Positions 36,024-40,151 of a stretch of DNA of 64,000 nt are shown here, piece by piece. The stretch is from Streptomyces sp. NBC_00306 (lineage in GTDB: Bacteria; Actinomycetota; Actinomycetes; Streptomycetales; Streptomycetaceae): positions 4,154,001 through 4,218,000 of the forward strand of contig NZ_CP108032.1 of assembly GCF_036169555.1 (NCBI RefSeq). Direction: 5' to 3'. The notes under the pieces are model-generated. The model was given only the letters and a program-made list of their open reading frames with translations. It ran no database searches and was not told the DNA's origin. Within the stretch, counting starts at the first letter, position 1. Every line of letters starts with the position of its first letter. The position numbers and the translations under genes are program-made.

Positions 36024-36713
36024 TCAGCCCGCGACCGGTCCCGGTCCGTAGTCCGCCCTGAATCCACCCAGACCGTCCGCGAGGTGGGCCACCCAGCCGC
36101 TCGGGGAGTACGGCTGAGGCGGGTCGACCTCCATGCCCAGCTCCGCCACCGCGAGCGCGTAGTCGGACTCTTCGAGGCCAAGGGCGAGCAGTTCGTGGAG
36201 CTCGCCCGTGAGGCGGGCAACCAGCTGCGGGTCCGTGGTGGCCGTGTAGTCGCGTACGGCCGCGTCGTGATCCGGGAACTCGTCCGGCATGTCCTGCGAG
36301 AACCATCCGCCGAGGAACTGGCCGAGCTCGGGAAAGCGGGCGTGCCACTCCCAGTGGGTCCGAGGGGTGGACGTCGGTGGGACCTCGCCCTCCTCAATGG
36401 GCCGCTTCAGGAGGTCCGCGATCACGAACAGCCAGTCCTGGATGGCAGATTCGGGCAGCCCGACGTCCGGAACCGGGTAGAACTCGCCGAGGCTGAGGCG
36501 CAGCCGGCCCGGAGGGTTGCGGGCGTATTCGCGAAGCTGTTGTTCGGCCGTGGCAAGGGCCCAGGGGCGGGTGTGCCAGGTGTGGCGGAGGTAAGCCTGG
36601 AGGGCTTCGCTCGGGTTGTCCGGCTCGTCGTCGGCCGACATGCCGGTGTACGCGCTGATCACCTGGTCCAACTCGCCGTAGCGGCGGTCGAATTCGAGCG
36701 GCTTCATGGACAC
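36024..36713 (-). CDS. CdiI-type immunity protein (contact-dependent inhibition immunity family)
   Basis: A 229-aa cytosolic protein. Residues about 118-205 match the CdiI_2-like pattern FPELGQFLGGWFSQDMPDEFPDHDAAVRDY, common among immunity proteins of polymorphic toxins. The N-terminal 110 residues form another helical part (LGEFYPVPDVGLPESAIQDW). GTG 36713 has AGGGG at 9 nt. It lies 12 bp after the orphan RNase A-like module and is the last gene of the minus-strand toxin operon. It is presumably the cognate antidote of that module or of a replaced toxin. Confidence 0.65.
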   Translation of the reverse strand: MSMKPLEFDRRYGELDQVISAYTGMSADDEPDNPSEALQAYLRHTWHTRPWALATAEQQLREYARNPPGRLRLSLGEFYPVPDVGLPESAIQDWLFVIADLLKRPIEEGEVPPTSTPRTHWEWHARFPELGQFLGGWFSQDMPDEFPDHDAAVRDYTATTDPQLVARLTGELHELLALGLEESDYALAVAELGMEVDPPQPYSPSGWVAHLADGLGGFRADYGPGPVAG

Positions 36714-36725
36714 GGCACTGAACCC

Positions 36726-37025
36726 CTACAGGTAGATCGGGACGGTGGTGAGCACGACGAAGCCGTGCGGGCTGTTCGGATCACGCCCCAGGACGACCCG
36801 TGCCGCGCGCACATCGATGGGCTCGCGCCCGGCGAGCATCATCGCTTGGAGCAGGACTCGGCCGACGGGTAGCTCGCGGGAGGGCCAAGCGGCCTCGATG
36901 GTCAGGCGGGCGCGGGTTCCCTGGGCGAGCCAGCGGTGGATCTTCTGTTCGTTGCCGGTCACCACCTGCTGGGTGGCCCACTGGGCGGTTTCTCGGTCGG
37001 GGTAGGTGGCGGATCTGGTCAGCAA
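36726..37025 (-). CDS. Orphan RNase A-like toxin module, N-terminally truncated
   Basis: A 99-aa peptide (M-L-T-R-S-A-T-Y-P-D-R-E-T-A-Q) that matches the second half of the CdiA-CT RNase A-like domain: a YPDRETAQWATQQVV helix, an IHRWLAQGT segment, ARVVLGRD and a final FVVLTTVP. The HVGKT...R segment that carries the catalytic His and Arg in the family is absent, and a TAA lies in frame just upstream. TTG 37025 has GAGAGG at 9 nt, so it may be translated. It is best read as an orphan, probably inactive, remnant of a toxin C-terminus kept next to an immunity gene. Confidence 0.55.
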   Translation of the reverse strand: MLTRSATYPDRETAQWATQQVVTGNEQKIHRWLAQGTRARLTIEAAWPSRELPVGRVLLQAMMLAGREPIDVRAARVVLGRDPNSPHGFVVLTTVPIYL

Positions 37026-37038
37026 GGGTTGTTACCTC

Positions 37039-37659
37039 TCAACGTGGATCGAAGGACCAGATCAGCCCGACTTCCTCGTCGGACACCCAAAGGAGCCCCA
37101 AGTCCCAGGCGTACTGACTGAGTGGTGAGCAGCTCGAGATCTTCTGATAGAAGTCGGGGGCCGCGCCGCCTCCCGAGGTGTTCGTGAAGAACCGAGTCTC
37201 GTCGGGAAAGCGCGTGAGAATCACCCTGGCGTGCTCCTCCATTTCAGCCAGCTGTTCGGGGAAGCGGGGGTCCCGGGAGACATCGAGATCGATGGTGGCC
37301 AGCAGCACGAGGAGTCGCACCACCGCAGAATGCGGAATTTCTCTGAGCAGGCCTCGCCATTTTGCCGAGCCCGCCTCGTCCACGGGCGGGGTGACGAAGG
37401 GGTAGGCCGGGTCGTCCGACCTCTCCTCCTCGCCTTCGTCGGGATCGATGGTCCGCCAGGACCGGGGATCCGTCGTCTCTCCCCGCATGACCGAGGCGAC
37501 ATCGTGCAGCCAGTCCTCCCGCGTACGGGGCCCGACGGCGACAAAGGTGTACCGACGGTCGTACATCTCCACCGCCGACCACCAGGAGTCGGCATCCACT
37601 GGTGTCGGCGGCCCGTTCATCTCGGGCGTCGTTCCGTCGTCCATCCAGACCTCGCTCAT
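37039..37659 (-). CDS. Unknown protein, candidate immunity protein for the RNase A-like toxin
   Basis: A 206-aa acidic cytosolic protein that I do not recognise. It has a Trp/Asp-rich N-terminus (DADSWWSAVEMYDRRYTFVA), a helical centre (AVVRLLVLLATIDLDVSRD) and a C-terminus ending DEEVGLIWSFD. Its ATG overlaps the toxin stop by 4 nt (ATGA). That tight coupling and its acidity are what one expects of the direct antidote of a basic ribonuclease toxin. The immunity role is an inference from position only. Confidence 0.55.
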   Translation of the reverse strand: MSEVWMDDGTTPEMNGPPTPVDADSWWSAVEMYDRRYTFVAVGPRTREDWLHDVASVMRGETTDPRSWRTIDPDEGEEERSDDPAYPFVTPPVDEAGSAKWRGLLREIPHSAVVRLLVLLATIDLDVSRDPRFPEQLAEMEEHARVILTRFPDETRFFTNTSGGGAAPDFYQKISSCSPLSQYAWDLGLLWVSDEEVGLIWSFDPR

Positions 37660-39404
37660 ACGGGCATCGAGGTGAACACGAAGTAGGGCGGGTCGAGACT
37701 CGGATCGCGCATGAGTCGCAGGGAAACGCCCTTCATGTCATGCACCTCCGAAAGCTTGCTGCCGTCATAGGTGACACCCTTGCCGGTGACGGCGTCGCCG
37801 ACGAGAGGGCCTTGCACCGGAACGGAGTCGCTCCTGACGATGAGTGATGCGTCCGGCGGGTCCCCTGCCAGCCACCGATCGATGTCGTCGGTGTTGTCAC
37901 GCAGGCAATACTGCGTGAACCGTTGTGCTGCCTCGACATCGGCGTAGGTCGATGCCCCAGGAATCCTCGGCTCACCATTCCCCTTCCTCTCATCTCTCAT
38001 CCGCTGCAGCAACTGCTCGTCAGTCTTCCCCACATGCTTGTCAAGGGTATGACCATTTCCCACCCCTTCCGCGGCGGCAAGGTCGACCGAGTACATGTAG
38101 GGGAACTGGCTCTCCGGCAGCTGCCAGCTGTGCTCCTTCTTGAACTCATTGAGGGAGCGCGCACCGAACCCCTGCGCCCGAGCCCGTTCCGCCTGGAACG
38201 TGGGCACGCTCAGGAGCGCCTCGTCGAGCTCGAACTCGAGCATGGCCAGCTTGCCCGCAGCATCGCCGAACGCCTCGTGATAGGCCCCTACCGCCGCGTC
38301 CATGGCCGCCTTGTCCATGTGGGACCGGAAGGTCAGGACGACCTCCGCGACCACGAGCCCGGCCGCGAGCCTGGTGAGTTTAGAGAGATCGAGATCCGAG
38401 GTGAGGCTGTTCACCGTCTTGTCCGTGGCCTCCTTGGCCAGGCGCGTGGTGGTTTCCGTGGTCTTCTGGCCCACGTCGGCCAGGTCGTCGAACAGCTTCT
38501 GAATCACGTTCGCGCTCTTGTCGAGGACCTCGATGATGGGGCGCCTGGTGGCAGGGTCCAGTTTCCCGTTGCTCTTCCAATTCCGGGTGCCCTTCTTGGC
38601 AGTCACCTCGGCCCGTTGGTCACGGGCCTTCCCCCACGCCGTGGTTCCCCAGATCGTCTGGCAGAAAGCCCTCATCGCGGCCTGCCATTCACCGTTGCCC
38701 GTGGGGTCGGTGATGTAGGAAATGGCGTCCGTGAAGTCGTCCGCCGCCTTCTTCACGTCCTTGGAGGCATTCCTCCAGGCCCCGGCGATGTCGCGGAACT
38801 CTTCTTCCTTGACGCCCGGCGTGATCTCGTGGACGCGGCCGAGTCTCAGCCCTTCATCGACCACGGGTTTCATGATGAACATGAGGAAGTCCGGGACCTC
38901 TCCGAGGATTCCGGAAATCGCCCACGAGTCGTGGTACTCGCCCTCCCCGCGCCACGTCAGGTCGTTCGGCGGACCGTACGTGGGCACGGTTGCGATCACC
39001 GCTGGAGGCTGCTTCTCCTCCGGTGGCTCTCCCTTGCCCTTGTTCGCCGCCCAGTCCGCCTGCGCATAGTTGTTCGCGGTCTGAGTGAAGCCCACCGCGA
39101 CACCACCCACCGACACCACGCTCTTCGCCCAGAGCTGCAGGAACTTCCCGGCGACGATGCCGTACCGGTCGGCGAAGGAGTCCGCGCCCCAGCCCGTTCC
39201 CGCGGACTGGCTGTATTTGTCCAGCGTGTCCGTCAGCGCCTTCGCCTTTTTGTCGTAGGCGAACTGACCGTCGCGTACGACGAGCGAGGTGAAGTAGAGG
39301 TGCTGAGGCTTCACATCGAAGCGGCCCACACCTTGGTTGGGTGGCGCGGTCTTGGCCTGGTCCCGTTCCCGCTGCCGCTGCTTGTCGGAAGGCAGGTCAG
39401 CCAT
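37656..39404 (-). CDS. Polymorphic toxin with RNase A-like C-terminal domain, likely type VII-exported
   Basis: A 582-aa protein. Residues about 1-25 are charged. About 45-115 is a WXG-like helical region (LDKYSQSAGTGWGADSF). The middle, about 120-440, is long and helical. The C-terminal domain, about 445-582, matches CdiA-CT RNase A-like toxins: His457 in KHVGKTDEQLLQR, Arg468 eleven residues later, ASTYADVEAAQRF, DRWLAG and a terminal FVFT with Thr578. The His-Arg spacing equals that reported for the Yersinia CDI RNase A toxin. The position of that enzyme's Tyr is Met580 here. The start overlaps the WXG100 stop (TGATG) and the stop overlaps the next gene. Codon use is less GC-biased than in flanking genes. 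Confidence 0.7.
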   Translation of the reverse strand: MADLPSDKQRQRERDQAKTAPPNQGVGRFDVKPQHLYFTSLVVRDGQFAYDKKAKALTDTLDKYSQSAGTGWGADSFADRYGIVAGKFLQLWAKSVVSVGGVAVGFTQTANNYAQADWAANKGKGEPPEEKQPPAVIATVPTYGPPNDLTWRGEGEYHDSWAISGILGEVPDFLMFIMKPVVDEGLRLGRVHEITPGVKEEEFRDIAGAWRNASKDVKKAADDFTDAISYITDPTGNGEWQAAMRAFCQTIWGTTAWGKARDQRAEVTAKKGTRNWKSNGKLDPATRRPIIEVLDKSANVIQKLFDDLADVGQKTTETTTRLAKEATDKTVNSLTSDLDLSKLTRLAAGLVVAEVVLTFRSHMDKAAMDAAVGAYHEAFGDAAGKLAMLEFELDEALLSVPTFQAERARAQGFGARSLNEFKKEHSWQLPESQFPYMYSVDLAAAEGVGNGHTLDKHVGKTDEQLLQRMRDERKGNGEPRIPGASTYADVEAAQRFTQYCLRDNTDDIDRWLAGDPPDASLIVRSDSVPVQGPLVGDAVTGKGVTYDGSKLSEVHDMKGVSLRLMRDPSLDPPYFVFTSMPV

Positions 39405-39746: not shown

Positions 39747-40151
39747 TCAGAGGTCGGAGAGGGTGCTGCGTGTCTCGGCGGGTACGTCGGTGTTCGGTGT
39801 CGACAAGGCGTCCGCCTCGCGCTTCACATCCGTCGTGACCTGGATCTTTCGTAGCTGCGCCATGATGTCCACGTCCTGTGCCGAGAACCCGTCCCGGCTC
39901 AATCGCACGGCCTGTTCAATAGCCTCGATGATCATGCGGATGCGTACGGCGTCCTCCGCCGCGCCCCGGTGGAGGTCTCGGTAGGCCCGGGCGGCCGGCC
40001 CCTGCCACCCCGCCTCGATCCGGTCGACGATCGCGTCCATGCGCCTGACCTGTTTGTCCAGGTAGCCCTGCATACCGTCGAGGTCATTGGCGAGGTCCGT
40101 CAGCCGTTCGGCCTGCGCCCGGAGTCGGGGCTGTCCGCCACCGCCGCTCAT
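39747..40151 (-). CDS. Second WXG100-like protein
   Basis: A 134-aa protein: helix, W-Q-G turn (IEAGWQGPAARAYRDLHRGA), helix, then a 45-residue charged tail. The layout follows WXG100 proteins with a C-terminal extension. ATG 40151 is preceded by GGGGGAAG, as in the other WXG100 gene. It is the first gene of the minus-strand toxin operon. It may form the heterodimer partner of the 100-aa protein or recognise the toxin. No EccC/EccD-type secretion gene is in the window. The 243-bp gap upstream presumably holds the operon promoter. Confidence 0.7.
   Translation of the reverse strand: MSGGGGQPRLRAQAERLTDLANDLDGMQGYLDKQVRRMDAIVDRIEAGWQGPAARAYRDLHRGAAEDAVRIRMIIEAIEQAVRLSRDGFSAQDVDIMAQLRKIQVTTDVKREADALSTPNTDVPAETRSTLSDL

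What the first reader, a model, noticed from the sequence alone, without database searches (positions are those of the whole stretch)
37656..39404. Polymorphic toxin with RNase A-like C-terminal domain in an actinobacterial WXG100 operon
The C-terminal 126 residues resemble the CdiA-CT RNase A-like toxin family. As I recall it, the Yersinia kristensenii CDI enzyme uses His175, Arg186, Thr276 and Tyr278. Here His457 and Arg468 have the same 11-residue spacing and Thr578 sits in the terminal FVFT. The Tyr site is Met, which may alter activity. In Gram-negatives this domain rides on CdiA; here it is in a 582-aa protein directly behind WXG100 genes, implying type VII export. That delivery route for a bacterial RNase A-type toxin looks under-described.
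Basis: partly seen in the sequence, partly recalled or inferred. Interest (0 to 1): 0.8.

Follow-up and report, generated by a model that had tools for sequence, protein, structure and literature searches.

The report
Dead RNase partner in toxin operon
A Streptomyces RNase A-type toxin on a carrier that looks made for type VII secretion sits in an operon with a small, highly conserved RNase look-alike that has lost its catalytic helix and travels with an immunity gene, which suggests an undescribed second layer of self-protection.

Summary
The gene is on the minus strand (39404 to 37656, 582 aa). Residues 451-581 match Pfam RNAse_A_bac (3.7e-21) and the model fits the Y. kristensenii CdiA-CT structure (Z 12.2, 1.5 A). 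His457, Arg468 and Thr578 are conserved; Met at the Tyr site is usual in this family. The carrier resembles ESX-1 EspB, has YxxxD/E in 60 of 60 aligned toxins, and the genome has EccC and EccD. Type VII export is likely, not shown.

The surprise lies downstream. After a variable immunity gene comes a 99-aa RNase A homologue (tRA, 36726-37025) without the N-terminal catalytic helix, then CdiI_2. In the best 80 of 179 related loci, tRA never has the catalytic His and Arg, directly precedes CdiI_2 in 78, and is the most constrained of five parts measured (dN/dS 0.19; toxin domain 0.62). It lies near 71 of 73 near-complete carrier genes and can outlive the toxin. I read tRA-CdiI_2 as a beheaded toxin-immunity pair kept as a second, family-wide immunity-side module. 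The mechanism is inferred; a co-fold was uninformative.

The parts
37656..39404 (-). toxin gene, 582 aa: EspB-like helical carrier plus C-terminal RNase A domain
38157..39320 (-). carrier region, residues 29-416, resembles ESX-1 EspB
   Evidence: VIA rows 2-10: eight chains titled EspB and 4wj2 ('Mycobacterial protein'), Z 9.8-12.1, rmsd 4.3-6.0, 8-11% identity; next row 7.1; Foldseek prob 0.57 at best
39054..39068 (-). YxxxD/E motif, residues 113-117 (YAQAD)
   Evidence: 60 of 60 aligned toxins, window included
37662..38054 (-). RNase A-like toxin domain, residues 451-581; His457 38034-38036, Arg468 38001-38003, Thr578 37671-37673, Met580 37665-37667
   Evidence: PF18431 3.7e-21; 5e3e Z 12.2; residue census
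37039..37659 (-). proximal variable immunity protein, 206 aa (IMM206 type), overlaps the toxin stop by 4 bases
   Evidence: no Pfam or NCBIfam match; nearest toxins share immunity type in 75 of 75
36726..37025 (-). tRA: stand-alone RNase A homologue, 99 aa, TTG start, lacks the N-terminal catalytic helix
   Evidence: PF18431 positions 26-113 at 2e-11; in-frame stop 3 codons above the TTG; family of 80 loci
36024..36713 (-). CdiI_2 immunity protein, 229 aa (GTG, or ATG at residue 3)
   Evidence: PF18593 5e-28; 5e3e_C (Ykris CdiI) Z 15.8, 1.5 A over 92 residues
39404..39706 (-). WXG100 protein b, 100 aa
   Evidence: PF06013 2e-10
39747..40151 (-). WXG100 protein a, 134 aa
   Evidence: PF06013 5e-10

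Best explanation
This is a Streptomyces type VII-linked antibacterial operon in two halves. The attack half is an EspB-like carrier fused to an RNase A toxin domain, with two WXG100 partners and a fast-evolving immunity protein specific to the toxin variant. The second half, tRA-CdiI_2, is an old RNase A toxin and its CdiI_2 immunity protein: the toxin lost its N-terminal helix (hence catalytic His and Arg) and its carrier, and the pair was kept as a constant, non-toxic module on the immunity side. Proposed mechanism: basic tRA and acidic CdiI_2 are made together by coupled translation, bind each other, and protect against the whole family of these toxins, whatever the variable immunity type; the empty helix site of tRA may accept the toxin's N-terminal helix, the most constrained part of the toxin domain. 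Shown: gene content, order, loss of catalytic parts, selection, co-occurrence. Inferred: history, binding, export, protection, helix capture.
For: Toxin. Order: tRA directly before CdiI_2 in 78 of 80 loci. Helix absent: His175 and Arg186 positions empty in 81 of 81 tRAs; no helix motif in any frame within 180 nt upstream in 80 of 80, against 75 of 78 toxins with it; a start codon available at residue -1 to 2 in 79 of 80. Selection: median dN/dS tRA 0.19, CdiI_2 0.27, WXGb 0.30, toxin RNase domain 0.62, IMM206 0.62. Dependence: 71 of 73 near-complete carriers have tRA within 4 kb; in G211:C48 the RNase domain is broken; in G222 the toxin frame is broken twice, the contig ends 0.9 kb after the immunity gene, and tRA sits 164 nt from the end of another contig. 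Asymmetry: of 14 loci in 13 genomes without a carrier match, 7 keep full-length tRA with the toxin absent or truncated, tRA dN/dS there 0.17-0.30 against a median 0.19 elsewhere. Constant module: tRA identity 0.817 within and 0.812 between immunity types, CdiI_2 0.726 and 0.727. Origin: CdiI_2 directly follows full RNase A tips in 21 of 23 non-carrier loci; tRA core identity is 0.31 to those, 0.24 to its own operons' toxins. Charge medians: tRA +5, CdiI_2 -19, toxin domain -3. Distances tRA-CdiI_2 rho 0.60, 0.46 with WXGb controlled. Helix: at core identity 0.35-0.55, helix identity 0.77 in tRA-linked toxins against 0.55 in 21 others, difference 0.15-0.29.
Against: The co-fold of tRA with CdiI_2 left tRA at pLDDT about 25-47 and gave no complex, so no model supports its fold or binding. 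In 4 of the 14 loci tRA itself is partial. Y. kristensenii CdiI binds through His175, Thr276 and Tyr278 (PMC9086364), of which tRA always lacks the His and often the Thr. Adjacent genes co-inherit: tRA also correlates with WXGb (0.52) and, with WXGb controlled, with the toxin core (0.26); among IMM206 loci the toxin core follows IMM206 (0.55) only a little more than tRA and CdiI_2 (0.45 each). The tree is unresolved on whether tRA came from non-carrier or carrier toxins. The helix constraint may come from substrate or catalysis. The 80 loci are the best of 179, picked by tRA identity; 30 of 80 have an open frame more than 25 codons upstream of tRA.
Confidence: 0.55

Rival explanations
1. tRA is only a folding or storage partner: it stabilises CdiI_2 (or keeps it occupied until a real toxin displaces it) and has no contact with the operon's own toxin; CdiI_2 guards against other RNase A toxins of competitors.
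For: Close genes, opposite charge, correlated distances, and CdiI_2 being the usual neighbour of non-carrier RNase A toxins.
Against: Does not explain why nearly every carrier locus has tRA (71 of 73) nor the extra helix constraint.
Confidence: 0.25
2. tRA is a toxin-side helper: it pairs with the RNase domain inside the producer (chaperone, or heterodimer by helix swapping) and is needed for safe folding or export.
For: Nearly strict presence with carriers; RNase A proteins are known for helix swapping (recalled; PMC6901985 seen only in the listing).
Against: Persists under constraint in 7 loci whose toxin is gone or truncated; sits beside CdiI_2, not beside the toxin gene.
Confidence: 0.1
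3. tRA is an RNA-binding protein: a dead RNase that still binds RNA, either shielding the toxin's target RNA or regulating the operon mRNA.
For: Basic (median +5, pI 11) with many invariant Arg among 14 aligned.
Against: The same charge fits the acidic neighbour; nothing here tests RNA binding.
Confidence: 0.08
4. tRA-CdiI_2 is an ordinary orphan toxin/immunity cassette, a relic or a reservoir for recombination.
For: Orphan modules are common downstream of CDI loci (PMC9086364 section 11); tRA is partial in 4 of 14 toxin-poor loci.
Against: Those lack start codons and are toxic when expressed; tRA has a start available in 79 of 80, lacks the catalytic helix in all, is one clade, and has the lowest dN/dS of five parts.
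Confidence: 0.02

Closest known systems
CdiA-CT/CdiI of Yersinia kristensenii (PDB 5e3e), RNAse_A_bac PF18431 and CdiI_2 PF18593
   Same: RNase A fold, His/Arg/Thr of the active site, and a CdiI_2 protein whose C-terminal half has the same fold as Ykris CdiI (Z 15.8)
   Different: EspB-like carrier instead of CdiA; Met for Tyr278; extra N-terminal half on CdiI_2; a second, variable immunity protein; and the helix-less RNase A
Orphan CdiA-CT/CdiI modules downstream of cdi loci (PMC9086364, section 11 read)
   Same: A toxin-like piece plus immunity gene downstream of a full toxin gene
   Different: tRA has its own start codon, no catalytic helix, one clade and strong purifying selection
Tde5 with Tdi5a and Tdi5b (PMC13392607; abstract and Discussion read)
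   Same: One nuclease toxin with two unlike immunity genes directly downstream
   Different: There the second immunity protein is not described as paired with a dead copy of the toxin; dual immunity is shown there, inferred here
EspB (ESX-1) and CpnT (ESX-5 substrate; PMC8092274, outline and short abstract seen)
   Same: Type VII carrier; CpnT too has an N-terminal part needed for secretion and a C-terminal toxin domain
   Different: Different toxin domain; antibacterial role assumed here; secretion in Streptomyces not shown
MafB2/MafI2 of Neisseria meningitidis (PMC9970974, passages seen)
   Same: Another bacterial polymorphic toxin with RNase A fold and an immunity protein that covers the RNA-binding surface
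   Different: Three His residues matter for its toxicity; other delivery; no dead RNase partner in the passages seen

Membership tests
RNAse_A_bac / CdiA-CT RNase A toxin family | HMM match above the curated cut-off over the whole domain | tested here: met
   76.5 bits against 27, profile 1-113
RNAse_A_bac / CdiA-CT RNase A toxin family | RNase A fold as in 5e3e | tested here: met
   Z 12.2, 1.5 A over 112 residues; ten-residue pLDDT means 81-96 from residue 451 on
RNAse_A_bac / CdiA-CT RNase A toxin family | His175, Arg186, Thr276 | tested here: met
   His457, Arg468, Thr578; of 78 rows H 75 and R 75 (3 gaps each), T 74 and S 4
RNAse_A_bac / CdiA-CT RNase A toxin family | Tyr278 | tested here: not met
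   Met580; Met in 63 and Tyr in 8 of 78 rows
RNAse_A_bac / CdiA-CT RNase A toxin family | metal-independent RNase activity | not testable with these tools
   needs an assay
   60 of 60 aligned toxins
ESX/type VII effector | EspB-like PE-PPE helical fold | tested here: inconclusive
   Z 9.8-12.1 in rows 2-10, next row 7.1, but helical bundles under about 13 can be a common arrangement; rmsd 4.3-6.0, identity 8-11%
ESX/type VII effector | T7SS machine in the genome | tested here: met
   EccC 878 bits, over cut-off; EccD 168 bits, over cut-off; about 1.8 Mb from the operon. Other components not searched
ESX/type VII effector | secretion through that machine | not testable with these tools
   needs an experiment
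CDI (CdiB/CdiA) system | CdiA filament carrier | tested here: not met
   no such Pfam domain in the 582 aa; carrier modelled as helical. CdiB was not searched
CdiI_2 immunity family (36024-36713) | PF18593 above cut-off and Ykris CdiI fold | tested here: met
   98.1 bits against 26.7; Z 15.8
orphan CDI toxin/immunity module (for tRA-CdiI_2) | toxin piece without a start codon | tested here: not met
   a start codon at residue -1 to 2 in 79 of 80
orphan CDI toxin/immunity module (for tRA-CdiI_2) | piece carries a complete active toxin domain | tested here: not met
   catalytic His and Arg absent in 81 of 81; activity itself not tested

The most novel reading that the evidence does not exclude
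tRA is a natural counterpart of ribonuclease S-protein used as an immunity factor: its empty helix site captures the near-invariant N-terminal catalytic helix of any toxin of the family, pulling the catalytic His and Arg into a dead body that CdiI_2 holds, which gives family-wide protection while the toxin core and its specific immunity proteins diversify freely.
Probability: 0.18. Interest if true: 0.88.

Novelty: new variant of a known kind. Interest (0 to 1): 0.62.

Why it matters
If tRA-CdiI_2 is an immunity-side module, toxin operons can domesticate a beheaded copy of a toxin as a constant safety device, which would explain how the toxin and its specific immunity protein can diversify without self-killing. 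It gives a testable case for how new toxin/immunity specificities arise, and a place to test type VII antibacterial warfare in Streptomyces. By its Pfam match tRA would be labelled one more RNase A-like toxin domain, which is probably wrong.

Tried and rejected
Co-fold of tRA with CdiI_2 as a read-through fusion: CdiI_2 well modelled, tRA not (pLDDT about 25-47), so no statement on fold or contact; Foldseek and VIA on that model had clear matches only for the CdiI_2 part.

Relic hypothesis: disfavoured by selection, start codons and distribution. Helix encoded upstream in another frame: 0 of 80. tRA outside the genus: in 296 genomes of the phylum five had a match; the strong ones were this genome and one more of the genus (at most 16 candidates a genome were scored). 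PADLOC: nothing at E 0.01 for four proteins. IMM206 as a hidden CdiI_2: no support (hhalign prob 0.5); X223 and IMM236 are probably distant CdiI_2 relatives (prob 88 and 65; IMM236 PF18593 E 0.0018, below cut-off).

Limits of the genome searches: one search scored only 5 candidates a genome and only 12, so a weak or second copy can be missed; a carrier elsewhere in the 13 'carrier-less' genomes is not excluded, only near tRA. Rows dropped before counts: one search used 73 carrier matches that cover nearly the whole query (fragments and two stop-bearing shorter ones left out) and 93 near-complete tRA matches (partial matches and the 28-38% group left out); both lists were transcribed by hand. 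Of the 21 tRAs without a near-complete carrier, 11 were opened (in one search, together with 3 partial tRA matches outside the 93); of the other 10, eight have a partial or stop-bearing carrier match beside them, G222 has its carrier on another contig, and G242:C1:2187040 has none. The toxin alignment used 59 of the 68 toxin genes. The fusion alignment used 28 of 33 in-frame pairs plus 21 tRA-only and 35 CdiI_2-only rows. The matched helix test left out L042 and L044. Non-carrier toxins are 23 of the 30 best matches, not a random sample. The tree used 32 of 78 toxin and 21 of 81 tRA rows, on 87 columns; the program warned of few columns and of long branches meeting (tRA with L054).

Literature: ten searches listed no paper whose title or abstract start points to a helix-less RNase A partner in toxin operons; the library lacks most subscription papers, and Batot 2017 is not held.
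Full report
1. The gene. The ORF lies on the minus strand, 39404 to 37656, 582 aa. PF18431 RNAse_A_bac covers residues 451-581 at 3.7e-21. The best PDB sequence match is 5e3e_B, the Y. kristensenii CDI toxin (5e-6). The AlphaFold2 model (mean pLDDT 83, pTM 0.84) places residues 450-582 on 5e3e_D with Z 12.2 and 1.5 A over 112 residues. His457, Arg468 and Thr578 stand at the His175, Arg186 and Thr276 sites. The fourth site is Met; of 78 toxin rows it is Met in 63 and Tyr in 8, so it is the habit of this family, while 23 non-carrier Streptomyces relatives have Tyr 14, Phe 8, His 1.

2. Delivery. About 390 N-terminal residues match EspB, an ESX-1 substrate: VIA rows 2-10 are eight chains titled EspB and 4wj2, titled only 'Mycobacterial protein' (Z 9.8-12.1, rmsd 4.3-6.0, identity 8-11%; next row 7.1). 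Foldseek alone gives probability 0.57 at best, and helical bundles can reach such Z by a common arrangement. A YxxxD/E motif sits at residues 113-117 in 60 of 60 aligned toxins, window included. Two WXG100 genes precede the toxin. The genome has EccC and EccD about 1.8 Mb away. Export by the type VII system is the natural reading, not a demonstrated fact.

3. What follows the toxin. A 206-aa gene overlaps its stop by four bases and matches no family. Then comes a 99-aa gene matching positions 26-113 of the same RNase A profile (2e-11), here called tRA, and then CdiI_2 (5e-28), whose C-terminal half has the fold of Y. kristensenii CdiI (Z 15.8). The same genome has a second operon of this kind.

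4. tRA is a family. A search of 392 genomes of the genus found matches in 99; the near-full-length ones split into a 62-99% group (tRA) and a 28-38% group (RNase A tips of other proteins). A scan of GTDB genomes gave 179 relatives, of which the best 80 were returned, all from records named Streptomyces. Among these 80 loci tRA is directly followed by CdiI_2 in 78 (L145 has the WXG pair in between, L144 lacks CdiI_2). In 47 of 80 the order is exactly WXGa, WXGb, toxin, one immunity gene, tRA, CdiI_2; the rest have extra, missing or moved pieces or meet a contig end. In 81 of 81 tRAs, window included, the catalytic His and Arg are absent, and the Thr site is Thr 40, Ala 30, Ser 10, Gly 1. No helix motif lies within 180 nt upstream in any frame (0 of 80), and a start codon is available at residue -1 to 2 in 79 of 80; an in-frame stop lies within 25 codons upstream in 50 of 80, so in 30 the frame stays open further up.

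5. Selection. Median pairwise dN/dS (Nei-Gojobori, pairs with dS 0.05-1; pairs are not independent) is 0.19 for tRA, 0.27 for CdiI_2, 0.30 for WXGb, 0.62 for the toxin RNase domain and 0.62 for IMM206. tRA is the most constrained of the five parts measured; WXGa, the carrier and the other immunity types were not measured.

6. Co-occurrence. Of 73 near-complete carrier matches in 392 genomes, 71 have tRA within 4 kb downstream. In the first exception, G211:C48, the RNase domain is broken. In the second, G222:C447, the contig ends 0.9 kb after the immunity gene and carrier and RNase domain each fall in two frames; tRA with CdiI_2 lies at the end of another contig. Conversely 21 of 93 near-complete tRAs lack a near-complete carrier within 6 kb. 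I opened 14 loci from 13 genomes with no carrier match (11 of those 21 and 3 partial tRAs): in 7 the toxin is absent or truncated while tRA is full length (CdiI_2 also in 6 of these 7); in 2 the RNase domain is frame-shifted; one starts at a contig end; in 4 tRA is partial. In the 7, tRA dN/dS to nearest relatives is 0.17-0.30, against a median of 0.19 elsewhere.

7. Two kinds of immunity. The nearest toxin by RNase core shares the proximal immunity type in 75 of 75 cases (shuffles at most 0.77), so the proximal protein is very likely the specific immunity protein. tRA and CdiI_2, by contrast, are as alike between immunity types as within them (0.812 and 0.817; 0.727 and 0.726). Against too clean a picture: among IMM206 loci the toxin core correlates with IMM206 at 0.55 and with tRA and CdiI_2 at 0.45 each, WXGb 0.24.

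8. Origin. In 21 of 23 non-carrier RNase A loci of the genus, CdiI_2 directly follows the RNase A tip. tRA core identity to those tips is 0.31, to the toxins of its own operons 0.24. tRA forms one clade (SH-aLRT 100) on a long stem (1.36 changes per column), but the tree has few columns and leaves open whether tRA branches from the carrier or the non-carrier toxins. The simplest history is one loss of the helix and carrier from a CdiI_2-type toxin, followed by a new, constrained role; this is inference.

9. Mechanism. tRA is basic (median +5, pI 11), the only part of nine with a positive median; CdiI_2 is -19 and the operon's toxin domain -3, while non-carrier toxin domains, the usual neighbours of CdiI_2, are +5. 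The stop of tRA lies 10-37 nt before the CdiI_2 match in 75 of 79 loci, fitting coupled translation. Their distances correlate (rho 0.60; 0.46 with WXGb controlled; tRA with toxin core 0.26, with toxin helix 0.17). In tRA-linked toxins the N-terminal helix is far more constrained than the core: at core identity 0.35-0.55 the helix identity is 0.77, against 0.55 in 21 other RNase A toxins (95% interval of the difference 0.15-0.29). That is what helix capture by tRA predicts, though catalysis or substrate could also cause it. The attempt to co-fold tRA with CdiI_2 failed to fold tRA, so contact rests on indirect evidence.

10. Place among known things. The toxin is a member of the RNase A toxin family on another kind of carrier than CdiA. 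tRA-CdiI_2 resembles the orphan modules of CDI loci but fails two of their marks (start codon absent; complete toxin domain). The nearest recent idea is the dual immunity of Tde5 (PMC13392607). I found no report of a catalytically dead, helix-less toxin copy as a fixed operon member in ten searches of an incomplete library.

Noticed in passing
L025 (G000:C1:4867000-4880000), minus strand: A second complete operon of this kind in the same genome, with a different proximal immunity type (IMM236) and further immunity-like genes (X223 type 223 aa, IMM248 248 aa) downstream.
   Followed up: partly
L204, L205, L145: In L204 and L205 the WXG100 pair sits between the immunity gene and tRA, in L145 between tRA and CdiI_2; in the first two, WXGa-WXGb-tRA-CdiI_2 mimics the order WXGa-WXGb-toxin-immunity.
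   Followed up: no
tRA stop codons in 79 loci; window 36726-36728: tRA ends in TAG in 67 of 79 loci (7 TAA, 5 TGA), perhaps because the stop forms part of the ribosome site of CdiI_2 (TAGGGG in the window).
   Followed up: no
toxin RNase domain, window 37662-38054: The toxin RNase domains of these operons are acidic by median (-3 or -4), unusual for an RNase, while their non-carrier relatives are basic (+5).
   Followed up: partly
L042, L044: Two identical, divergent RNase A tips (G198, G153) with no CdiI_2 recognised in the 1.5 kb held downstream; their immunity is unknown.
   Followed up: no
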